A stretch of DNA of 33,409 nucleotides from Candidatus Eiseniibacteriota bacterium. GTDB lineage: Bacteria; Joyebacterota; Joyebacteria; Joyebacterales; Joyebacteraceae. Positions 7,449 through 30,557 of this stretch are shown here, one piece after another. The stretch's first letter is position 1; each line of letters starts with the position of its first letter. The notes below the pieces were generated by a model. It worked only from the letters and a program-made list of their open reading frames with translations. It made no database searches and was not told the origin of the DNA. The position numbers and the translations under genes were made by a program. The DNA lies in assembly GCA_030622115.1 (NCBI GenBank), contig JAUXGN010000027.1:1-33409 (forward strand), given 5' to 3'.

Positions 7449-7976
7449 CTAGCGATACAGGGACTTGATGGCACTCCAGGTCCGCTGCTCAACCGCTGTG
7501 ACGATGACGTCGATGTAGCCGGTCACGTAGTGGGGGTCGGCTCCATAGAGATCACCCCAGAGTTCCCACTGAATCTGCGTGCTCGTCATCACCGCGGGAA
7601 GAGTTACGTCGACCCATACGTCCGTGCCCTCGGTGCTGTAGATCTCGCCGTAGCCGCCATTGTTGTCGGCCCAGATGGCGGTCGGTACGGTGGGGGTCAC
7701 GGTCGTCGACCAACTGGGCCGTGTGTCGGTGATCATGGTGTAGCCCATTGTGGCCTGGTTAGCGAAGGTACCCGCGCCGAAGGGGAAGTGGATCTCAACG
7801 TTGGTGATCCACTCAGCGTCCGGTGATGCGTTCTGAACGAAGAACACAAACATGTAGGTGCCGCCGGGGCTCACGGTGGTCGGCGAAAGAAGCGTGACGG
7901 TTGCGTTGCCGATGTCGCGAGCAGCGACCGGAACTGCAAGCGCCAGAACGAGAAGAGCAATAGCTAGTATCTTCAT
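7449..7976 (-). CDS. secreted Ig-like protein with C-terminal WSAIKSLYR tag
   Basis: 175 residues from ATG at 7976, with AAGGGA 9 nt upstream. It opens with a signal peptide (MKILAIALLVLALAVPVAA). The mature part is rich in Thr, Val and aromatics in alternating pattern, for example SPTTVSPGGTYMFVFFVQN, as in extracellular beta-sandwich (CARDB/DUF11-like) domains. I do not recognise a named family. It ends VEQRTWSAIKSLYR, and the same tail ends four other secreted proteins at 20.2-24.5 kb whose bodies are unrelated to this one. The frame stays open upstream to a GTG at 8051, but that extension would add 25 residues before an obvious signal peptide. A promoter lies at 8133-8161, so the leader is about 150 nt. 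Confidence 0.85.
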   Translation of the reverse strand: MKILAIALLVLALAVPVAARDIGNATVTLLSPTTVSPGGTYMFVFFVQNASPDAEWITNVEIHFPFGAGTFANQATMGYTMITDTRPSWSTTVTPTVPTAIWADNNGGYGEIYSTEGTDVWVDVTLPAVMTSTQIQWELWGDLYGADPHYVTGYIDVIVTAVEQRTWSAIKSLYR

Positions 7977-8132
7977 CGTTTTCCGTCCCTTCTCTTGTGA
8001 GGGAAAAATCGTAGCGGCAGAACAATCTCTAGCTATGGTTCGAAGGGCCACCTCCCTTCAGGTAAACTCCGCTCCGGCGTCCGCAAGGAGAGTGTTGGAC
8101 GGACCGAGACGAGGCTTGTTCAGTACAAACCA

Positions 8133-20219: not shown

Positions 20220-20816
20220 ATGAGATACATTGTGGCAGTGCTCCTGGTTGTCGTCTTGACCGTAGCGCCGGCGGTGGCTGGTATGAACCCGGAATGCAAG
20301 TTCTTCGTTACGTTCGCCGATACAAGCTCGGTGACCTACCAGAACTTGGCGGACGGGGCCCGCGTGGACCCGGTCATGTACACGGCCTTCGATGCGCATT
20401 TCGGCATTCTTGACTACGGTTGCTTCACGACCATTTCGTTCATGATCGAGAACACGCCCGGCATGTCGTCACCGGTTGCCTATGACAATCTTCTGCCGGG
20501 CAACCTGGCGATCGGTGCGTACGAGACCGGCGTGACGCTGGCTTCGACCATTCAGCTTGACAGCTCAGTGCAAGGCCCCTTCTACTTCTTTGCCACCGGC
20601 CACTACTTCTATCTCAACGTGCCGGGAGAGATCAAGATAGTGGACCATCCCGAATTCCCGCGTTGGGTCGTCAGCTGCAATGATGAAGTCGACTACTACT
20701 GTGTCTGGCAGAATGGTGGAGTTGCCATGGACGCGGTCGTCGTTGAGGCCGAGTGCTACGGTGACGTGCCGGTCGAGTCCTCCAGTTGGGGCGCGATCAA
20801 GTCTCTGTACAGGTAG
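20220..20816 (+). CDS. secreted family protein, member 1, with C-terminal WGAIKSLYR tag
   Basis: 198 residues with a signal peptide (about residues 1-20, ending in AVA) and GGAGGG 7 nt before the ATG. The mature domain, about 150 residues, has the family pattern: MYTAFDAHFG, FTTISFMIENTPGM, YDNLLPGNLAIGAYETGVTLAS, GHYFYLNVPGEIKIVDHPEFPRWVVSCND, DYYCVWQNGGV. This reads as an all-beta extracellular domain with a conserved Cys pair; a distant resemblance to cohesin-like sandwiches is a guess. It is the most divergent of the four tagged members. It ends VESSSWGAIKSLYR. No clear promoter is visible in the 158 nt after tRNA-Val, so it may be read from upstream. Confidence 0.88.
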   Translation: MRYIVAVLLVVVLTVAPAVAGMNPECKFFVTFADTSSVTYQNLADGARVDPVMYTAFDAHFGILDYGCFTTISFMIENTPGMSSPVAYDNLLPGNLAIGAYETGVTLASTIQLDSSVQGPFYFFATGHYFYLNVPGEIKIVDHPEFPRWVVSCNDEVDYYCVWQNGGVAMDAVVVEAECYGDVPVESSSWGAIKSLYR

Positions 20817-20845
20817 GGTGTTCAAGACATCGGCCACTATTTGAC

Positions 20846-20874
20846 TTGCATGAGCCTGCATCAAGTGATAGCAT
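20846..20874 (+). promoter_or_regulatory. promoter-like site directly before a hairpin
   Basis: TTGCAT at 20846-20851, a 17-nt spacer and TAGCAT at 20869-20874. A transcript would begin near 20881 and run at once into the hairpin at 20889-20922, so it could give a very short RNA. Confidence 0.45.
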
Positions 20875-20888
20875 GAATATGATCTGAT

Positions 20889-20922
20889 GAATCGGGCCCG
20901 CCCCCCGTGGCGTGCCCGATTC
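20889..20922 (+). terminator. hairpin after secreted member 1
   Basis: GAATCGGGC (20889-20897) pairs with GCCCGATTC (20914-20922), with further CGCC/GGCG pairing inside. The T-rich tail is weak. It is likely the terminator of the gene ending at 20816. Confidence 0.6.
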
Positions 20923-21112
20923 TGCTGTCACCATGCTGTGGCAGTCCGATTGAAGGTGGTTTCTGACAGTGCAAAGGCGCACCTGCGGGCTTGGTTCTTG
21001 CTCCGTATGTGAATAGAATGGGTGCTATTGCGTCAAAACACGTACACCGAGCGGAAAACAAGTCTAGAGGTGCTTCCAGAGTGTGAACAGGCTGACGCTT
21101 GGCAATTCGTGC
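20923..21112. other. non-coding spacer
   Basis: Part of a 490-nt stretch without a gene between 20817 and 21306. Apart from the promoter-like site and hairpin before it, and the promoter and leader after it, I see no ORF, repeat or structure I can support here. Confidence 0.5.
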
Positions 21113-21141
21113 TTGCAAAGAAGTCCAAGCTGTGCTAACAT
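21113..21141 (+). promoter_or_regulatory. promoter of the dockerin-like gene
   Basis: TTGCAA at 21113-21118, a 17-nt spacer and TAACAT at 21136-21141. It gives a leader of about 160 nt before ATG 21307. Confidence 0.7.
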
Positions 21142-21187
21142 CTACAATGATTAGTATTGGTGGCAGAACAGGTTATCAACGAAGGGG

Positions 21188-21235
21188 GGACTATAGTCCG
21201 AAAGGAGGGCGGAAGCGCCAAGTTGGCGATCTTTT
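21188..21235 (+). promoter_or_regulatory. leader structures: 12-nt palindrome and attenuator-like hairpin
   Basis: GGACTATAGTCC (21188-21199) is a perfect palindrome. Behind it CGCC (21216-21219) can pair with GGCG (21225-21228), followed by ATCTTTTT to 21235. The stem is short, so an attenuator is possible but weak. Confidence 0.35.
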
Positions 21236-21306
21236 TGGGTCCAGATATAGGGCTCGGAAGTGCGTGCAATCCCAGCACGAATCGTGTCCTAAAGGAGGTA
21301 GAGAGA

Positions 21307-21945
21307 ATGTCAAGAATACTGGCGGGTGTGTTGGCTGGCTGCCTGATCCTCGCCGTAGCCGGCGTTGCCGGTGCCGGCATCCCTGATCCCGATCTTTCGC
21401 AGATCACTCTGCAGCCGGTGCAGACCAATTCTGGTCTGATGACTTGCTGGCAGGGAGATGCTCCGGGTTTCGAGATGCTCCAGGTCGAGGCTAAGAGAAC
21501 CGATGCGACAGCGATCGAGGGGATTCCCTCCACGAGTTTCTTCTTCACGATCACCGGTGGTGCTGACGTGACGATTACTTGTGAGAGCGTTCCGCCCGAG
21601 ACGGATGCGACCGGCCTAATCCAGTTCTCGGTCGTCGCAAACGAGGCCATCGCGCATCCGCTCGCAAGCGGCGGCGGTTCTGGTCTTACTGACGGCGTGG
21701 CGATCGGTATCGACGTGCAGATCTACACGGTTGCTCTGACGAACGGTGTGTCACTCACATGCAACACGGTTGACTACACTCTGAGTGGCGACGTCAATCC
21801 TGTCGACTTCGGTAAGTTCGCTGTTGATTTCGGTACCGATGTTGGCGTGGATCCGTATCGCGAGCGAAGCGATTTTGACTGGAGCGGTGGAATCATCGGT
21901 CCTGTCGATTTCGGCAAGTTCGCTGCTCACTTTGGAGCGCACTAG
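21307..21945 (+). CDS. secreted protein with a C-terminal dockerin-like repeat
   Basis: 212 residues from ATG 21307, with the strong ribosome site AAAGGAGGT 7 nt upstream. A signal peptide covers about residues 1-24 (LAVAGVAGAG). The middle is a Thr/Ser-rich beta domain of unknown type. The last ~50 residues hold a twofold repeat, GDVNPVDFGKFAVDFG and GPVDFGKFAAHFGAH. The second copy is preceded by the EF-hand-like loop DFDWSGG. Paired Asp-rich loops with a following helix are the pattern of type I dockerins, which bind cohesin domains through calcium. The first loop is poor, so calcium binding is not certain. It has no WxxIKxLYR tail. The neighbours are family members whose fold might act as partner; that is speculation. 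Confidence 0.8.
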   Translation: MSRILAGVLAGCLILAVAGVAGAGIPDPDLSQITLQPVQTNSGLMTCWQGDAPGFEMLQVEAKRTDATAIEGIPSTSFFFTITGGADVTITCESVPPETDATGLIQFSVVANEAIAHPLASGGGSGLTDGVAIGIDVQIYTVALTNGVSLTCNTVDYTLSGDVNPVDFGKFAVDFGTDVGVDPYRERSDFDWSGGIIGPVDFGKFAAHFGAH

Positions 21946-22155
21946 TCGTAGATGGTAGGGGCAATATCTTGCACGGGTGAGGTGATGGGTGGGCGGATGC
22001 ATTGAGGCTTTCGTTCTATTTCCCGACTCAGGAACCAGAACGCACCATCAATGTGGTACCGCATCAGTGGGGTGGTGCCCGAGCTAATCATCATGGACTG
22101 ACCGAGGTTGTCTGCGATGCTGTCGAAGACACCTCTGTTGGGAGGAGATCAAATA

Positions 22156-22701
22156 ATGCGTACACTTCTTGCTTTCTTGCTGGTCGTTGCGATCGCCGTT
22201 CCGGCGTTTGCCGGCGACAACCCTGCTATTCAGATGTACGTGGACTTCGAGGACGGTGGCTACGTTCACAGAGCCGATCCTGCGATGTACACGGCGTTCG
22301 ATGCTTTCTTCATGGTTGACACGTTTGTTGGCTTCACGACCATTTCGTTCATGGTTGGGAACACGCCCGGCATGTCGACACTGGTTGCCTACGACAACCT
22401 CCTGCCAGGTAACCTGGCAATTGGCGCGTACGAGACCGGCATCACGCTTGCCTCGACCGAGTGCATGACGGTTGCACCGCTGGCCGTTGCTGTTGGTCAC
22501 TACTTCTATCTCAACGTGCCCGGCGACATTCAGATCCTCGACCACCCCGAGTTCCCGCGGTGGGTTGTTGACTGCAACGACCAGGTCGATTACTACTGCG
22601 TCCTGATCAATGGTGGCGTCCACCAGGATCCGATCGAGGGCGACTGTGGCAGCCCGGTCGAGAACAGCTCCTGGGGCGGTATCAAGGCTCTGTACAGGTA
22701 G
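22156..22701 (+). CDS. secreted family protein, member 2, with C-terminal WGGIKALYR tag
   Basis: 181 residues from ATG 22156 (GGAGGA at 22141-22146). The signal peptide is MRTLLAFLLVVAIAVPAFAG. The mature part is almost identical to members 3 and 4: IQMYVDFEDGGYVHRADPAM, FVGFTTISFMVGNTPGM, ILDHPEFPRWVVDCNDQVD, YYCVLINGGV. Two Cys (VVDC, YYC) are conserved and could form a disulfide. It ends VENSSWGGIKALYR. DNA identity to member 3 is very high from just after the signal-peptide codons, yet the signal peptide and leader differ. I see no good promoter in the 210 nt after the dockerin-like gene. Confidence 0.9.
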   Translation: MRTLLAFLLVVAIAVPAFAGDNPAIQMYVDFEDGGYVHRADPAMYTAFDAFFMVDTFVGFTTISFMVGNTPGMSTLVAYDNLLPGNLAIGAYETGITLASTECMTVAPLAVAVGHYFYLNVPGDIQILDHPEFPRWVVDCNDQVDYYCVLINGGVHQDPIEGDCGSPVENSSWGGIKALYR

Positions 22702-22736
22702 TTCTAGTCCCAATGCAGTATGATTACCGAGGATTG

Positions 22737-22764
22737 GACGGGTGGCGGATTCATGCCACCCGTC
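22737..22764 (+). terminator. terminator after member 2
   Basis: Perfect 10-bp stem GACGGGTGGC/GCCACCCGTC (22737-22746 with 22755-22764), followed by a T-rich TCCTTTT. The same core (CGGGTGGC) recurs after members 3 and 4. Confidence 0.85.
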
Positions 22765-22818
22765 TCCTTTTGTGTCGTAGGACCCCTAGGAGGTCCGTCT
22801 AGTACGGTGGAATTGTGG

Positions 22819-22847
22819 TTGCAGACCGTAGCTTGATATGATACAAT
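22819..22847 (+). promoter_or_regulatory. promoter of member 3
   Basis: TTGCAG at 22819-22824, a 17-nt spacer and TACAAT at 22842-22847. Identical boxes and spacing stand before member 4. The leader to ATG 23036 is about 180 nt. Confidence 0.8.
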
Positions 22848-22892
22848 GGTTGTGTGGTAGTGAAGTGCAAAGGTGGATTGAGTGTTGGCAAG

Positions 22893-22942
22893 CGGCCCCG
22901 TCGCCCCCTGGGCCGGAAGACTAGGCGGCGCGGAAGGTGGTC
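22893..22942 (+). ncRNA. candidate structured leader of member 3
   Basis: CGGCCC (22893-22898) pairs with GGGCCG (22910-22915), then GACTA (22919-22923) with TGGTC (22938-22942). In the second copy the GACTA arm is GACCA, so C-G becomes U-G and pairing is kept. It matches no riboswitch class I know; common descent by duplication may explain the conservation. Confidence 0.4.
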
Positions 22943-23035
22943 GCAAGACTTGTTGAGATAATGGTCAGTGTATCCGGCATGCGGACAGAGGAGTCGGATG
23001 ATTGGCCGTTCATGTCTCAGAGGGAGGAAACACAA

Positions 23036-23584
23036 ATGAAGAGCTTGCTTGTTGCTGCTCTGGTTCTCGTAGTTGCTATTCCGGCGTTCGCCGGCAACAA
23101 CCCTGCTATTCAGATGTACGTGGACTTCGAGAACGGTGGCTACGTTCACAGAGCCGATCCTGCGATGTACACGGCGTTCGATGCTTTCTTCATGGTTGAC
23201 ACGTTTGTTGGCTTCACGACCATTTCATTCATGGTTGGGAACACGCCCGGCATGTCGACACTGGTTGCCTACGACAACCTCCTGCCAGGTAACCTGGCAA
23301 TTGGTGCGTACGAGACCGGCATCACGCTTGCCGCGACCGAGTGCATGATAGATGTGCCTCTGGCCGTTGCTGTTGGTCACTACTTCTATCTCAACGTGCC
23401 CGGCGACATCCAGATCCTCGATCACCCGGAGTTCCCGCGGTGGGTTGTTGACTGCAACGACCAGGTCGATTACTACTGCGTCCTGATCAATGGTGGTGTC
23501 TGCCAGGATCCGCTTGAGGGCGACTGCCCCATCGTTCCGGTTGAGGAAGGCTCCTGGGGTTCGATCAAGGCCCTGTACAGGTAG
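23036..23584 (+). CDS. secreted family protein, member 3, with C-terminal WGSIKALYR tag
   Basis: 182 residues from ATG 23036 (GGAGG 7-8 nt upstream, in GGGAGGAAACACAA). The frame is open back to 22937, but that extension has no ribosome site and would precede a clear signal peptide (MKSLLVAALVLVVAIPAFAG). The mature domain matches member 2 nearly base for base over its first ~220 nt. Differences gather after TECM (TECMIDVPLAVAV) and in the variable stretch before the tail (CQDPLEGDCPIVP). It ends VEEGSWGSIKALYR. The long leader and its own promoter and terminator make it a single-gene unit. Function unknown; secretion is the only safe statement. Confidence 0.9.
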   Translation: MKSLLVAALVLVVAIPAFAGNNPAIQMYVDFENGGYVHRADPAMYTAFDAFFMVDTFVGFTTISFMVGNTPGMSTLVAYDNLLPGNLAIGAYETGITLAATECMIDVPLAVAVGHYFYLNVPGDIQILDHPEFPRWVVDCNDQVDYYCVLINGGVCQDPLEGDCPIVPVEEGSWGSIKALYR

Positions 23585-23615
23585 ATTTCTCAGCACGCGA
23601 AATAGTGGTTAGAGA

Positions 23616-23642
23616 ACGGGTGGCGCTTCCGGCGCCACCCGT
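23616..23642 (+). terminator. terminator after member 3
   Basis: Perfect 11-bp stem ACGGGTGGCGC/GCGCCACCCGT (23616-23626 with 23632-23642), loop TTCCG, followed by CTTCTTTG. Its sequence is identical to the one after member 4. Confidence 0.88.
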
Positions 23643-23695
23643 CTTCTTTGTGTACAGAACGAGCGTATCGTGGATCCGTCTTGTACGGATTGTCA

Positions 23696-23724
23696 TTGCA
23701 GGCCGTGGCTTGATATGGTACAAT
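23696..23724 (+). promoter_or_regulatory. promoter of member 4
   Basis: TTGCAG at 23696-23701, a 17-nt spacer and TACAAT at 23719-23724. Both boxes are identical to those of member 3. Confidence 0.8.
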
Positions 23725-23769
23725 ACTGGTGCAATTGAGAAGTGCAAAGATGGATTGAGCGTTGGTAGG

Positions 23770-23816
23770 CGGCCCCGTCGCTCCTTGGGCCGGAAGACCA
23801 GGCAGCAAATGTGGTC
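23770..23816 (+). ncRNA. candidate structured leader of member 4
   Basis: CGGCCC (23770-23775) with GGGCCG (23787-23792), then GACCA (23796-23800) with TGGTC (23812-23816). Same two hairpins as in the member 3 leader, while the loops differ in sequence and length. Confidence 0.4.
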
Positions 23817-23906
23817 GTGACGGTTGTTGAGGTGAGAGTCAGTGTATCCGGCATGCCGACAGAGGAATCGGGTACCTGACGTCCATGTTGACGGGAGGAA
23901 ACACAA

Positions 23907-24452
23907 CTGAAGAGCTTGCTCGTTGCTGCTCTCGTGCTTGCAGTAGCCATTCCGGCGTTTGCCGGCGACAATGTTGGCATTCAGATGTACGTGGACTTCA
24001 CGGACGGTGGCTATGTGCACAGAGCCGATCCTGCGATGTACACGGCGTTCGACGCTTTCTTCATGGTTGACAACTTCGTTGGTTTCACGACCATTTCGTT
24101 CATGATTGGGAACACACCCGGCATGTCGACACTGGTTGCCTACGACAACCTCCTGCCTGGTAACCTGGCAATTGGCGCGTACGAGACCGGCATCACGCTT
24201 GCCGCGACCGAGTGCATGACGGTTGCACCGCTGGCCGTTGCTGTTGGTCACTACTTTTATCTCAACGTGCCCGGCGACATCATGATCCTCGATCACCCCG
24301 AGTTCCCGCGGTGGGTTGTTGACTGCAACGACCAGGTCGATGACTACTGCGTCCTGATCAATGGTGGCGTTTGCAAGGATCCGCTCCCGGGCGATCCTTG
24401 GTGTCCGGTTGAGAACAGCTCCTGGAGTAACATCAAGGCCATGTACAGGTAG
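23907..24452 (+). CDS. secreted family protein, member 4, CTG start, C-terminal WSNIKAMYR tag
   Basis: 181 residues if read from CTG 23907. The alignment with member 3 is exact around the start (GGAGGAAACACAA then ATG there, CTG here), so the ATG has mutated to CTG while ribosome site, spacing and signal peptide (LKSLLVAALVLAVAIPAFAG) are intact. TTG 23916 is the next possible start but would cut three residues and lengthen the spacing. The rest of the frame is intact and closely matches members 2 and 3, so this is not a decayed gene. It ends VENSSWSNIKAMYR, the most divergent form of the tag. Expression may be lower than that of member 3. Confidence 0.85.
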   Translation: MKSLLVAALVLAVAIPAFAGDNVGIQMYVDFTDGGYVHRADPAMYTAFDAFFMVDNFVGFTTISFMIGNTPGMSTLVAYDNLLPGNLAIGAYETGITLAATECMTVAPLAVAVGHYFYLNVPGDIMILDHPEFPRWVVDCNDQVDDYCVLINGGVCKDPLPGDPWCPVENSSWSNIKAMYR

Positions 24453-24483
24453 GTTTCTCAGCAGGCGAGGTTGATATACGACA

Positions 24484-24510
24484 ACGGGTGGCGCTTCCGG
24501 CGCCACCCGT
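24484..24510 (+). terminator. terminator after member 4
   Basis: Perfect 11-bp stem (24484-24494 with 24500-24510), loop TTCCG, followed by TCTTCTTG. Same stem as after member 3. Confidence 0.88.
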
Positions 24511-24683
24511 TCTTCTTGTCGGCCCGGCTGCTAAGCGCTATCGTTTCTGCTGGCGGACGGCTATGATTGTGCTCCGGCGAATCACCCATTGAAGGACCGG
24601 CAGGTGACCTTCGTCAGATTGCCGGCGGAGGTAGCGCGAGCGGTCACGCACCGCGGTTCGCATTCCGGAAGGAGCGCAGATTG

Positions 24684-25265
24684 ATGACAAGATCCATTGT
24701 GTTGGCTTGCTGTGCATCGCTGCTTCTCGCAGTGGTCCCCGCGTCGGGTCATGACGCTCCGATCGAGTGGATCGCCGCTGAGGGAGACAGCAGTTCCCCC
24801 ATACGCCTGTACATCGACTTCGATCCGCCCAATCGGGTACACACCATCAGCCCGGATGTGAATGACGAGGTCGACGCCTATGTGATGGTTGACTGCATAA
24901 ACCCGGGGAATCTGCCTGGAGGTCTGAGGACTATCTCCTTCCGGCTCGCGGTGGACGCAGATGTGTCGGCAAGGCCGTGGTTCGAGAGTCTTCTGCCTGG
25001 GGAGATGCGAGTTGGGAATTGGAGGGATGGGATCACAATGGCATCGGCTCCGTGCACGGGAGAGAGTCCGGTTGCCATAGGCGTTCTGCACCTCAGGTAT
25101 CTGGGGAAGCCGGGGGTGGTCAGGATTCTGGACCATCCGCAGTTCCCGCGCTGGATCGTGAACTGCGAGTCCGGCACGACCAGGTACTGTGTGGCGTCGG
25201 ACGGCGGTATCGGGATGAGCGCGCCCGTGAGGAACAATGGCTGCGAGTGTCTCTCGATCGAGTAG
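24684..25265 (+). CDS. divergent secreted family protein, member 5, without the C-terminal tag
   Basis: 193 residues from ATG 24684 (GGAAGGAG 9 nt upstream). A signal peptide MTRSIVLACCASLLLAVVPASG opens it. The mature part keeps the family outline at low identity: IRLYIDFDPPNRVHTISPDV, GLRTISFRLAVD, ESLLPGEMRVGNWRDGITMAS, VVRILDHPQFPRWIVNCES, RYCVASDGGIG. The Cys pair is kept. Unlike members 1-4 it stops soon after the domain with NNGCECLSIE and has no WxxIKxLYR tail. It may therefore be released, or be handled differently from its relatives. No promoter stands out upstream. Confidence 0.85.
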   Translation: MTRSIVLACCASLLLAVVPASGHDAPIEWIAAEGDSSSPIRLYIDFDPPNRVHTISPDVNDEVDAYVMVDCINPGNLPGGLRTISFRLAVDADVSARPWFESLLPGEMRVGNWRDGITMASAPCTGESPVAIGVLHLRYLGKPGVVRILDHPQFPRWIVNCESGTTRYCVASDGGIGMSAPVRNNGCECLSIE

Positions 25266-25393: not shown

Positions 25394-26773
25394 TTGTTCA
25401 AACGCGGCATTCCGCTCCTTGTGCTTCTTCTAATGGTCTTGGCGGCAGGCTGCGCCGTTCAGGAGAAGCCTGCGACGCCAAGCGGGCCGTTCGAGATCGC
25501 GGTGCTTGCGACTACGGACACGCGTGGCGAGATCGAGCCCTGTGGCTGACACGGTGGCCAGAAGGGCGGGCTGGTCCGGAGGGCCGGCTACATCAATCAG
25601 ATTGCAAACGAGTCACAGTACCACCTGATTCTTGACGGGGGCAGCTCGCTTTCGCGCAAGAGCTTCGAGCGTGTGATGGTCGACAACGTGAACCTGCGCG
25701 GTATGGCACAGACCGGTTGCGATGCCACGACGATCGGAGTGCTCGATCTATACATGGGTGCGGCATACTATGTCGACCGCATCGCCGAGGCAGGACTCAC
25801 GGCCGTATCGGCGAATGTGCTGGACGAATCCACCGGCGATCTGCTTGTGCCGCCGTATGTGATCGTTGAAAGGGGTGGGGTCAAGTTTGGCATCACGGGT
25901 GTTCTGAACCCGGATTTCAAGATCAGAACGGACAATGATATAGAAAGCCATGGCGCTGTGGTAAGCGATCCTGTGGAGGCTCTCAGAAAGTACATCCCGG
26001 AGATCAGGAGACGGGTCGATCTCGTAGTCGTTCTGAGCCACTCCGGCCTGACTCGCTCGAAGGACATCGCCGGCGAGGTCGAGGGCATAGACATCATGGT
26101 CGTAGGCAATCACAATGCGCACGCCGCGCAGCCCTATGAGGTCGGAGAGACACTCATGATGCAGCCCGGCTACAGGGGCCAGGCCATATGCGACTACCGG
26201 CTGGGTTTCGACGCGGACGGCACGTACAAGTCGTATTCGGGCAAGACAGTTGTGCTGGACAACAAGGTACCCGCTGACGCGGCGATGGCCTTGGTGCTCA
26301 AGGAGCATAAGCTGATGGTCGAAGCGGCGTCGAAGCAGCGGGTGGCGGATCAGGCTACCGAGAGACGGCTCAGGCGAGAGGCCAGAAACGCCGCGGCTGC
26401 GGAGCGCTACAAGGAAGACTGCATTGGTGTCAACGGGTCGTGTAAGCGTTGCCACCAGGACGAGTACGACCAGTGGCAGACGACCGCGCACGCGTCTGCC
26501 TTCGAGACACTCGAGAAGAGCCTTCAGTCCACGAATCCCGAGTGCTTGAGTTGTCACACGACCGGCCAGAGAGATCTCCCCGGTGACGGATCGGTGACGG
26601 TTCCGGCGGACCTTCGCGGCGTTCAGTGCGAGGCGTGCCACGGTCTCGGTGCGGAGCACAGTCGAGACGGTTCGTACGGCCGAACAACGGTCGCAACGTG
26701 CATCGGTTGCCACGATTCAGACAATAGCCCGGACTTCAACTTCCCACAGTATCTGGCGAAGGTGACGCACTAG
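25394..26773 (+). CDS. UshA-like selenoprotein with four c-type heme sites (lipoprotein)
   Basis: One frame runs from TTG 25394 to TAG 26773, interrupted only by TGA at 25547-25549; reading it as selenocysteine gives 459 residues with Sec at 52. AGGAGG lies 5 nt before the TTG. MFKRGIPLLVLLLMVLAAGC is a lipoprotein signal with the lipid Cys at 20. The motif is TTDTRGEIEPCGU; Cys-type relatives of UshA-like proteins have EPCGC here, followed by a GGLxRRA stretch (GGLVRRA). The metallophosphatase-like domain continues to about residue 320. Four CXXCH motifs (Cys 350, 384, 412, 436) then bind c-type heme, so it lies outside the inner membrane. NHE and DxGD metal ligands of true 5'-nucleotidases are missing, which favours a redox role. 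A simple nonsense mutation is the alternative, but the frame shows no other damage. Confidence 0.85.
25547..25549 (+). other. in-frame TGA, probable selenocysteine codon
   Basis: TGA follows the codons for Pro-Cys-Gly at the position where Cys is usual in the family. The frame is open for 51 codons before and 407 after. Confidence 0.85.
25570..25588 (+). promoter_or_regulatory. candidate bacterial SECIS hairpin
   Basis: GCTGGTCC (25570-25577) pairs with GGGCCGGC (25581-25588), including two G-U pairs, over the loop GGA. The loop lies 28-30 nt after the TGA and begins with G, as bacterial SECIS elements do. It would bind SelB. Confidence 0.65.
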
Positions 26774-26795: not shown

Positions 26796-26843
26796 ATTTC
26801 GATCTGGACGCGAGGGGCCGGGTACGGTGAGGGGGTGCGCAGC

Positions 26844-29800
26844 ATGTCGCGGACGGTTTCCTCGGCTGTGTTCCTGGCAGTCCTGTTGGCCACAACGCTT
26901 ATCACGGTCACTGGCCGTGCGAACGAAGTCCGGGTTCTCGAGGAGAGCAACACGGAGATTGTGATCGAACTTGCCACCAACGACTACACCTTTGAGGATG
27001 TGGTCCATGGTGGCGAGACGTTTGTCAGGGTGATGGCACGCGATCTCGAGCACACGACCGAACCGGGGCTTCCCGCTCTTCCCATGCGGGGTATTCTGGT
27101 TGGTGTTCCTTTCGGCGCCAACGTATCGCTCGACGTTCTCTCGTTTGAGAGCGAGGAGCTTGGCGTTCTCCAGATCGAGCCCGCGCCGACCGGGCGATTC
27201 GTGGAGCGAGACGATTTCACCTTCGCTGTTGAGGACTATGAGATCGACCAGGACTACCATCGAGGTGGTCGGACGCATCCTTCTGGCGTAGCGAGCCAGG
27301 GGTTCGATACCACGCTGAGGCACCAGAGAGTTATTCAGGTTCTTCTTCATCCATTCCAGCACTCACCCTCGACCGGTCGGCTCACTCTTCACAGGAGCAT
27401 CACGGTTCGGTTGAAGTTCAGCGGCCGTGGCCGTCCCGCTGGGCTGACGGATGTTCACGCGTACGAACCCGAGTGGGAGCAGCTCTACGCCGGCACCGTT
27501 CTCAACTATGAGGGGGCACGGGAGTGGCGGCTTCGTCCGGAACCCGCGCGGACCTGGAAGCGTGCTGAGATGCGCCAGGATCACGAGGTCTATAAGCTGA
27601 CCATCATGGATTCCGGCATCACCAGATTGAGCTTCTCCGATCTGTCGGCGGAGGGACTGTCCGGAACCCTGGGGACGGATGAAATAGCGATCTACCAGCG
27701 TTCCTACGACGAGAATGCGGAGAACCCGTTTGTTGAGACCGCGACGCCCATCCTCGTCTTCGATGAGAACGAGAACGGATTTTTCGACGGCTCGGATTAT
27801 CTTCTCTTCTACGCGCAGAGCTTCGAACAGCAACACATGCCTGTCGGCTATGAGGACCGCTACACTGATGAGAACATCTACTGGTTCGGTTGGGGTGAAG
27901 AGCTGGCCGAACGCATGGGCACGCGCACTGCATGGCACGACTGGACGGGACTGACGCCGCCTGCGAGCTTCAGCGAGACGGTAAGATTCGAGGAGGATGC
28001 TCTCTTCACGCGTGCTCCGGCAAGCGATGTGGTGGACCTGTGCCTGTGGACCGACTACTCCTCGTCCGGTGACGACCACGAACTTCCGTTCCATATCTAC
28101 GATGTGAACTACTCCGAGGATGCCCGAGTACGTGCACGCTACCAGGGAATATCGAGTAGCGGGCACGACGTCACGATCTCGATCATCGACGGCAATTCTG
28201 TAGAGCATTCGGTTGGCGCCTACCTGTTCTATGGCCTCGCCGCGACAATGGAGGAGCATATCTTCGATGTAGCGTCCGTTCCGGCCACCTATTTCACCGA
28301 CGGAGAGAACACGTTCCGAACGCAAGGCACTGTTGGACCGTCAACAGCTTACCTCGACTGGTTCGAGATCACATACGGGCGCAGGTACGTTGCACACGGG
28401 GGACGCCTGGGGTTCACAAGCGGGGGGGAGACCGGCGATATCCAGCTCGAGGTGACCGAGTTGTCGAGCAGTGATATCCGCCTGTTCGACGTCACCGACC
28501 CTTGGGATCCTGTCGTGTTCACGCTCTCTCCTGAGAACACCGTCGATGCCGGTGGCAGCTACACGCTTGTTCTTCAGGATGAGGTCGCCGAGCTTGCGCG
28601 CTATGAGCTTGTGGAAAATGGGAGCTACCGCACGCCCGAGGGGGTCGAGAGGCGTGAGCCCGCGAATCTCTTTGAGCAGGAAGCCGATCTCATTGTTGTG
28701 TCCTATGAGGGATTCTCATCAGGCGTAGAGCCTCTGATCGCTCATCGCGAGTCCGAGGGTCACGTCGTCACTCACGCCCTGCTCCACGACGTATATGACG
28801 AGTTCTTCGGAGGTCTCGTCGACCCGCAAGCCCTCAAGAACTACTTCAAGTACGCGTTCTATAAGTGGACCCGTCAACCGCAGTTCGCGCTGCTCGTGGG
28901 GGATGCCAGCGAGGATGCCCGGGGGGTCACGTCGACGAGTGCCCCTAACTACATGCCCACGTACATCACATCGCTTGCGGCCAGCAGTGAGCTCATCGGC
29001 AGTGATGAGTGGATGGTCACGTTCGTTGATGAGACACCCTACCTTCCTCAGATGTACATCGGAAGGCTCCCGGTCGGCTCGAGTGGACAACTGAGCAGCC
29101 TCGTCTCCAGGATCCTCACCTACGAGAATGCCTCATCGGCCGGCGCAGACTGGCGCAACAGGATTCTCTTTGTGGCAGATGATGCCTGGTCGTACGGCGA
29201 TGACTTCAACGAGTACACGAAAAAGGAGTCGAGCGAGGGCAAGTTCACAACTGAATCGATCGTGATGGCGGAGACGGTGGCTGCGTCGCCCGCCGGGATG
29301 GACACCGTCATGTTCATGCTCAGGCGATACACGGATCCGTTCCACGGAGATCTCACGGAGGACGATTTCTACAACAGCATGGTATTTGTGGAATCCGAAG
29401 CTGCGCCTGCGCTGCTGGAGATGCTGACGGCCAGTGCGCTGGTCGTCAATTTCCAGGGACACGCGAACAAGCATGTTCTAACTCACGAACGACTGCTCGT
29501 GGACAAGCACCAAGGCGACGATTTCGATTCGATGGGGAACACCGACAAGCCGTTCATATTCTTCGGCTTCGCCTGCAGCATCGCCAGGTTCTTCGATTGC
29601 TACGAAGGCTACACGGGTTACGATTGCTTTGCGGAGCAGCTCCTGTTTCTTGATGAGGGGCGGGGAGCTGTCGCCTCGTTTGCGAGCACGGGGCTCGAGT
29701 ACCTGACCCCGAACATCAGATACAATAAGAAGATATTCGAGGCCATGTTCGCCGACCCGACACCGACCGATCCGCCGGAGGAGTATTTCGAGCCGAGGTG

Positions 29801-30557
29801 GTCGTTGGGCGGAATTCTGGGAAAAGCTGCCGTGGAGTACGTGACTTCGGGAGGGTCGGGTATCGCCGCAATGCGCTTCGTGCTCTTGGGAGATCCTCTC
29901 CTTCACTTTGAGGCGTCTCCACCGGTCTTTCAGGTTACCGTCGACGGAGTTCCGCACGTCAGCGGGGACTACCTGGAATCAAGCGCTGGTGAAGTGGTTC
30001 AGATCGTTGCCGACATCATCGATGAGGTTGAGATCAATCCTGCGACGATCTCCGTGGTCGAGAGCGATCTTGGAGAGATAGACCCGGAGCTCTATCTTGT
30101 AGAGTCCGTCACCGACACCGGAGCCCAGCAGAGTCGCTGGTATCGCCTGACCTACAACACGGAGATCCGCGACTGGACATACGACATCAGGATATCCGCA
30201 ACTGATGTGAACGGGCAGAGAACGACATTCACGCTTCACGTGGCGGAGGGGAATAGGATCCTGATAAGGGATGTCGCGAATCACCCAAATCCGTTCGATC
30301 GCACGACGAGCATCATCTACCTTCTGAATCAGAGTGGTGCAGAGGTCGAAGTAAAGATCTACACGGTCGGAGGGCGTCTGATCGAGGTCTTAGAAGACGC
30401 GCCGAACGATCTCAACTACAACGCTCTGGTGTGGGATGGGAAGGACAGAGATGGCGACACAGTAGCCAACGGTGTCTATCTCTTCACTATCGAGGCGAGG
30501 GGAGAAGACGGGTCCAGCGCGATGACGCCCGTTGGGCGAATGGTGAAGATGCGGTGA
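26844..30557 (+). CDS. C25 (gingipain-type) peptidase with FlgD-like C-terminal domain, PorU-like
   Basis: 1237 residues from ATG 26844 (GAGGGGG 8 nt upstream; the in-frame GTG 26835 overlaps that site). Signal peptide about residues 1-26. A long beta-rich N-terminal part (to about 630) precedes the C25 catalytic domain, with LIVVSYEGF, FALLVGDASED, RNRILFVADDAW, VVNFQGHANKH (catalytic His873) and FIFFGFACSIARFFD (catalytic Cys911). An Ig-like segment follows, then a C-terminal FlgD/T9SS-type domain: NHPNPFDRTTSIIY, VEVKIYTVGGRLI, WDGKDRDGDTVANGVYLF. Size and the ACSIARFFD motif recall PorU, the type IX secretion sortase, but stand-alone surface peptidases share this plan. No other Por gene lies in the window. 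Its TGA overlaps the next ATG. Confidence 0.9.
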   Translation: MSRTVSSAVFLAVLLATTLITVTGRANEVRVLEESNTEIVIELATNDYTFEDVVHGGETFVRVMARDLEHTTEPGLPALPMRGILVGVPFGANVSLDVLSFESEELGVLQIEPAPTGRFVERDDFTFAVEDYEIDQDYHRGGRTHPSGVASQGFDTTLRHQRVIQVLLHPFQHSPSTGRLTLHRSITVRLKFSGRGRPAGLTDVHAYEPEWEQLYAGTVLNYEGAREWRLRPEPARTWKRAEMRQDHEVYKLTIMDSGITRLSFSDLSAEGLSGTLGTDEIAIYQRSYDENAENPFVETATPILVFDENENGFFDGSDYLLFYAQSFEQQHMPVGYEDRYTDENIYWFGWGEELAERMGTRTAWHDWTGLTPPASFSETVRFEEDALFTRAPASDVVDLCLWTDYSSSGDDHELPFHIYDVNYSEDARVRARYQGISSSGHDVTISIIDGNSVEHSVGAYLFYGLAATMEEHIFDVASVPATYFTDGENTFRTQGTVGPSTAYLDWFEITYGRRYVAHGGRLGFTSGGETGDIQLEVTELSSSDIRLFDVTDPWDPVVFTLSPENTVDAGGSYTLVLQDEVAELARYELVENGSYRTPEGVERREPANLFEQEADLIVVSYEGFSSGVEPLIAHRESEGHVVTHALLHDVYDEFFGGLVDPQALKNYFKYAFYKWTRQPQFALLVGDASEDARGVTSTSAPNYMPTYITSLAASSELIGSDEWMVTFVDETPYLPQMYIGRLPVGSSGQLSSLVSRILTYENASSAGADWRNRILFVADDAWSYGDDFNEYTKKESSEGKFTTESIVMAETVAASPAGMDTVMFMLRRYTDPFHGDLTEDDFYNSMVFVESEAAPALLEMLTASALVVNFQGHANKHVLTHERLLVDKHQGDDFDSMGNTDKPFIFFGFACSIARFFDCYEGYTGYDCFAEQLLFLDEGRGAVASFASTGLEYLTPNIRYNKKIFEAMFADPTPTDPPEEYFEPRWSLGGILGKAAVEYVTSGGSGIAAMRFVLLGDPLLHFEASPPVFQVTVDGVPHVSGDYLESSAGEVVQIVADIIDEVEINPATISVVESDLGEIDPELYLVESVTDTGAQQSRWYRLTYNTEIRDWTYDIRISATDVNGQRTTFTLHVAEGNRILIRDVANHPNPFDRTTSIIYLLNQSGAEVEVKIYTVGGRLIEVLEDAPNDLNYNALVWDGKDRDGDTVANGVYLFTIEARGEDGSSAMTPVGRMVKMR

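What the first reader, a model, noticed from the sequence alone, without database searches (positions are those of the whole stretch)
25394..26773. Selenocysteine-containing lipoprotein that a standard gene caller splits in two
The TGA at 25547 sits in an intact frame, in the PCGU position where relatives have PCGC. A lipoprotein signal lies before it, a conserved domain after it, and a hairpin with a G-first loop 28-30 nt downstream fits a bacterial SECIS. An automatic caller would give a 60-residue orphan and an N-truncated cytochrome. To my recollection Sec forms of UshA-like proteins are known, so the novelty is the combination with four hemes.
Basis: partly seen in the sequence, partly recalled or inferred. 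Interest (0 to 1): 0.75.

Follow-up and report, generated by a model that had tools for sequence, protein, structure and literature searches.

The report
Selenocysteine four-heme lipoprotein, known family
The in-frame TGA really does encode selenocysteine in a lipoprotein that carries four hemes, but this protein family, tetraheme tail included, is already catalogued (NCBIfam NF041198), so the main new points are that its "UshA" phosphatase site has decayed and that its recoding hairpin is strictly conserved.

Summary
The TGA at 25547-25549 interrupts one 459-codon frame (signal peptide with lipobox-like LAAGC, UshA/SoxB-like domain, four CxxCH). The same TGA occurs in all 18 family members recovered. 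Just downstream, eight codons forming a 9-bp hairpin with a GGA loop are identical in all 18; of 51 comparable degenerate codons elsewhere in the gene, 1 is. The genome has tRNA-Sec(UCA), SelA, SelB and a SelD that is itself interrupted by TGA. Across 52 relatives the column is Sec in 34 and Cys in 18; strong SECIS-like hairpins go with Sec. Sec is near certain, though no peptide was measured.

The claimed novelty does not hold. The protein scores 300.6 bits (cut-off 275) to NCBIfam NF041198 "UshA-like (seleno)protein", whose model already spans the heme tail (positions 347-518). Of the 52 relatives, 43 have hemes. UshA-like CxU selenoproteins have been published since 2008.

What is added: the metal and catalytic ligands of the UshA phosphoesterase site are not conserved, while C-x-(U/C) is invariant. 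The likely role is a membrane-anchored selenol/thiol oxidoreductase wired to a tetraheme domain, not a nucleotidase; substrate unknown.

The parts
25394..26773 (+). Complete selenoprotein gene (459 codons plus TAG; TTG start after a GAGGAGG Shine-Dalgarno-like stretch)
   Evidence: One open frame when TGA is read as Sec; full-length match in all 17 other family members, each with one TGA
25394..25453 (+). Signal peptide ending in lipobox-like LAAGC (lipidated Cys at residue 20, predicted)
   Evidence: Sequence; VAGC/IAGC/AAGC at this place in family members
25487..26308 (+). UshA/SoxB-like (COG0737-type) domain with degenerate metal site
   Evidence: NF041198 positions 6-260 match residues 15-265; PDB 5'-nucleotidases and SoxB are among the best N-domain hits; ligand loss
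25541..25549 (+). C-G-U motif: Cys50, Gly51, Sec52 (TGA 25547-25549)
   Evidence: Cys50 and Cys/Sec52 invariant in all 52 relatives
25569..25589 (+). SECIS-like hairpin: 9-bp stem, GGA loop at 25578-25580
   Evidence: Folding; codon-level invariance; equivalent G-first hairpins in the other Sec members
26423..26770 (+). Tetraheme cytochrome c554-like domain (CxxCH at 26441, 26543, 26627, 26699)
   Evidence: PF13435 2.7e-16; motif positions
26835..30557 (+). Neighbour: secreted C25 (gingipain-type) peptidase, next to the selenoprotein gene in every family member checked
   Evidence: Pfam PF01364 6.1e-57; synteny

Best explanation
A real selenoprotein of the known UshA-like PCGU family, tetraheme form. 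SelB, bound to a SECIS-like hairpin 28 nt after the UGA, delivers Sec-tRNA(UCA) so that the UGA is read as Sec52 (inferred from conservation and the machinery). The product is exported, lipid-anchored and loaded with four c-type hemes (inferred from signal and motifs). The UshA-fold domain has lost its dimetal phosphoesterase site and keeps an invariant Cys-x-Sec/Cys pair in the loop just after the former metal-binding DxH motif (shown by alignment). The pair most likely cycles between selenol/thiol and selenenylsulfide, or acts as a selenolate nucleophile, on an unknown extracytoplasmic substrate, with electrons passing through the four hemes to or from the respiratory chain (inferred). The confidence given is for the Sec and family assignment; the redox mechanism on its own I put at about 0.6.
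For: Same TGA in 18 of 18 family members from eight genera, frame otherwise intact. Hairpin codons nucleotide-invariant. Complete Sec machinery with a Sec-type SelD next to tRNA-Sec. Column always Cys or Sec in 52 relatives. Best G-first hairpin has median -14.8 kcal/mol after Sec codons and -4.3 after Cys codons. NF041198 above its cut-off over both domains. UshA metal and catalytic ligands lost: here His43>Arg, Asn116>Val, His117>Leu, Asp120>Tyr, His252>Asn, His/Gln254>Asn; the genome's own UshA-like proteins keep most of them.
Against: No peptide or selenium measurement. Eighteen of the 34 Sec members are one bacterial family with an identical hairpin, so the Sec/Cys hairpin contrast is partly one lineage. 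No covariation inside that family because its stem never varies. Structure prediction failed (pLDDT 33), so the distance of Sec52 to the old active site and to the hemes is unknown. No pathway operon outside this lineage points to a substrate. Some Sec and Cys members have no hemes, so the hemes are not essential to the motif.
Confidence: 0.9

Rival explanations
1. The TGA is a true stop (pseudogene, sequencing error or programmed truncation) and the downstream part is a separate truncated cytochrome.
For: A caller without recoding gives a 366-aa ORF from GTG 25673.
Against: The TGA and the frame around it are kept in 18 of 18 family genomes and in unrelated families; the codons between the TGA and GTG 25673 encode conserved residues; Sec machinery is present.
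Confidence: 0.02
2. Sec is inserted, but the protein is still a metal-dependent nucleotidase/phosphoesterase (or SoxB-like hydrolase) whose Sec is a metal ligand or accessory residue.
For: Sequence homology to 5'-nucleotidases and SoxB; Asp41 kept in 36 and His217 in 22 of 52.
Against: Asn116, His117 and His252/254 are not conserved, neither in Sec nor in Cys members; the only fully invariant reactive side chains in the domain are the two Cys/Sec.
Confidence: 0.15
3. UGA is reassigned or read through by an ordinary tRNA (for example Trp or Gly) rather than as Sec.
For: None found.
Against: A Sec-type tRNA with UCA anticodon is present; TGA ends genes normally in the same genome, for example several of the tagged ORFs; homologues have Cys, not Trp or Gly, in the column.
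Confidence: 0.01

Closest known systems
NCBIfam NF041198 UshA_like_PCGU, 'UshA-like (seleno)protein' (equivalog); listed as selenoprotein 'UshA-like', CxU, in PMC2398784, PMC9312934 and PMC13188914
   Same: Score 300.6 against cut-off 275; PCG(U/C) motif; UshA-like domain followed by a tetraheme tail inside the same model
   Different: Nothing at family level; this lineage has its own SECIS-like hairpin (GGA loop, 28-nt spacer) instead of the GGUCU loop common in other members, and a fixed C25-peptidase neighbour
UshA 5'-nucleotidases and SoxB thiosulfohydrolase
   Same: Sequence homology over the N domain
   Different: Metal and catalytic residues lost, Cys-x-Sec gained, hemes fused
NF049981 UshA_like_Sel_2 ('UshA-like selenoprotein family 2', CxxU)
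   Same: UshA-like with Sec; weak match of 43.6 bits
   Different: Below its cut-off of 140; different Sec motif (PMC13188914)
NF040886 ExtKL multiheme c-type cytochrome selenoprotein
   Same: Selenoprotein with cytochrome c554-like hemes
   Different: Only 18 bits against a cut-off of 250

Membership tests
NF041198 UshA-like PCGU (seleno)protein | Whole-protein score above the curated cut-off | tested here: met
   300.6 against 275 bits
NF041198 UshA-like PCGU (seleno)protein | PCGU/PCGC motif after the first strand | tested here: met
   E-P-C-G-U at residues 48-52; column Cys or Sec in 52 of 52
NF041198 UshA-like PCGU (seleno)protein | C-terminal multiheme part covered by the model | tested here: met
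   Residues 278-450 match model positions 347-518 with 142.9 bits
Bacterial selenoprotein | In-frame UGA, selA/B/C/D in the genome, Cys homologues | tested here: met
Bacterial selenoprotein | bSECIS: stem-loop with G at the start of the loop, about 16-37 nt after UGA (range from memory) | tested here: met
   9-bp stem, GGA loop, 28-nt spacer; no dedicated bSECIS predictor was available and Rfam has no match
Bacterial selenoprotein | Sec chemically present in the protein | not testable with these tools
   Needs mass spectrometry or selenium labelling
UshA-type 5'-nucleotidase | Dimetal and catalytic residues DxH, D, NH, H, HxH | tested here: not met
   Most ligands replaced here and unconserved across 52 relatives

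The most novel reading that the evidence does not exclude
The PCG(U/C) family is a phosphoesterase fold turned into a redox enzyme: the dimetal site has been replaced by a Cys-x-Sec/Cys pair that exchanges electrons with a fused tetraheme chain, an oxidoreductase type not yet characterised and misleadingly named after UshA.
Probability: 0.4. Interest if true: 0.6.

Novelty: new member of a known kind. Interest (0 to 1): 0.3.

Why it matters
It documents Sec use in this lineage of Candidatus Eisenbacteria-like genomes (the library search found no paper joining the two terms) and gives a clean SECIS conservation case. More broadly, the family is named after a nucleotidase whose active site it lacks; the invariant feature is a Cys-x-Sec/Cys pair fused to hemes, which makes a redox function testable.

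Tried and rejected
AlphaFold2 on a four-sequence alignment gave pLDDT 33 and was discarded; no fold search was run on it. The broader relatives came from the genome search, and such loci are not on the list accepted for structure jobs, so a deeper alignment was not submitted. Rfam search of the SECIS stretch found nothing. Gene neighbours in other lineages (dnaN/recF-like, tsaD, integrase, sugar epimerase, S41 peptidase) gave no common pathway. Single-sequence folding energy (z = -1.45) is not evidence for the hairpin by itself. RNAalifold within the family cannot show covariation because the stem is invariant. A true stop, reassigned UGA and sequencing error were considered and rejected (see rivals).

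Full report
OBSERVATION. Reading 25394-26773 with TGA as Sec gives one 459-residue frame with a single recoded codon, TGA 25547-25549. It starts LFKRGIPLLVLLLMVLAAGC, a signal peptide with a lipobox-like end, and contains EPCGU, a UshA/SoxB-like domain and four CxxCH motifs. A standard caller reports only a 366-aa ORF from GTG 25673.

SEC MACHINERY. The genome (2.63 Mb, 98 contigs, 100% complete) holds a tRNA-Sec above the Rfam cut-off (70.9 bits) that ARAGORN calls tRNA-SeC with anticodon TCA, SelB (353.5 bits with its neighbours in the frame, cut-off 242), SelA (520.6 bits) and SelD (368 bits) interrupted by one TGA in a VRCSGU context, encoded directly upstream of tRNA-Sec.

CONSERVATION. 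All 18 members of the window's bacterial family in which the gene was found have the same TGA in the same place, with four CxxCH. Three of them correspond to public MAGs, two labelled Candidatus Eisenbacteria. Codons 58-65 of the gene (from the sixth codon after the TGA), GGC GGG CTG GTC CGG AGG GCC GGC, are identical at every base in the 18 sequences. Of 51 other columns with an invariant residue of the highly degenerate kinds only one is codon-invariant; over all invariant residues it is 8 of 8 against 7 of 93, Fisher p = 3.2e-8. These codons form the 9-bp stem with GGA loop, 28 nt after the UGA. The rows are phylogenetically related, so the p-value is a guide, but the contrast is within the same genes.

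SEC AND CYS RELATIVES. In 52 relatives the column is Sec 34 times and Cys 18 times; hemes (three or more CxxCH) occur in 31 Sec and 12 Cys forms, and are absent in 3 Sec and 6 Cys forms. Relatives were picked with a pattern that asks for C-x-[C/U] followed by GG-like residues, so rows without any such motif (four loci, and L047) were not counted. A tree of the UshA-like domain needs about 4 Sec/Cys changes (bootstrap 3-5), although well-supported branches force only one and several rows have long branches. A simple scan for stem-loops with G in the first two loop positions gave median -14.8 kcal/mol after Sec codons and -4.3 after Cys codons; 33 of 34 Sec members and 8 of 18 Cys members are in the best tenth of windows of their own gene. 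Many Sec members outside the window's family have a GGUCU loop 19-20 nt downstream, the loop sequence known from E. coli fdhF (from memory).

KNOWN FAMILY. The protein passes NCBIfam NF041198, UshA_like_PCGU (300.6 bits, cut-off 275). The heme half alone matches positions 347-518 of that 519-position model with 142.9 bits, so the fusion is part of the described family. Of 386 genomes sampled, 33 had a match over the cut-off. Reviews list 'UshA-like', CxU (PMC13188914 with this accession; PMC9312934); the family was already in the 2008 GOS survey (PMC2398784).

FUNCTION. Compared with the genome's own UshA-like proteins, the selenoprotein lacks most metal and catalytic residues (E. coli UshA numbering, from memory): His43>Arg, Asp84>Ser by this alignment, Asn116>Val, His117>Leu, Asp120>Tyr, His252>Asn, His/Gln254>Asn; across 52 relatives these columns are scattered, while Cys50, Cys/Sec52, Gly58 and Gly83 are invariant (the first two partly by the selection pattern). 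A phosphoesterase role is therefore unlikely, and a selenol/thiol redox role coupled to the hemes is the best inference. The GOS paper noted UshA-like as one of the few major families lacking a conserved Cys-based redox motif; here the C-x-(U/C) pair is constant. The substrate is unknown. Outside this lineage the neighbours are unrelated housekeeping genes. Inside it the order secreted-protein array, selenoprotein, C25 peptidase, glcE-like, glcF-like is conserved wherever the contigs reach.

VERDICT. A correct and well-supported Sec call for a new member of a known selenoprotein family; the heme combination is not new.

Noticed in passing
window 7449-8051 (-), 20220-20816, 22108-22701, 22937-23584, 23916-24452 (+); genome-wide: Predicted secreted proteins end in W-x-x-I-K-x-[hydrophobic]-Y-R-stop. 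The DNA pattern hits 36 places in this genome (0 in the reversed control), 13-58 places in each of the 20 genomes of the family and almost none elsewhere (4 of 78 genomes, 1-3 each): probably an undescribed lineage-specific C-terminal sorting or processing tag.
   Followed up: partly
window 20220-25265: Tandem array of paralogous secreted proteins (at least five copies), kept next to the selenoprotein gene in relatives.
   Followed up: partly
window 26835-30557: Gingipain-type C25 peptidase with propeptide and C-terminal FlgD-Ig-like domain, next to the selenoprotein gene throughout the family.
   Followed up: partly
L020 1501-2427 and L004 1501-1599 (G000:C66): SelD is itself a selenoprotein (in-frame TGA) and lies directly upstream of the tRNA-Sec gene.
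   Followed up: partly
L104 (G215:C229): Two adjacent Sec-containing copies of the family in one distant genome, next to dnaN and recF-like genes.
   Followed up: no
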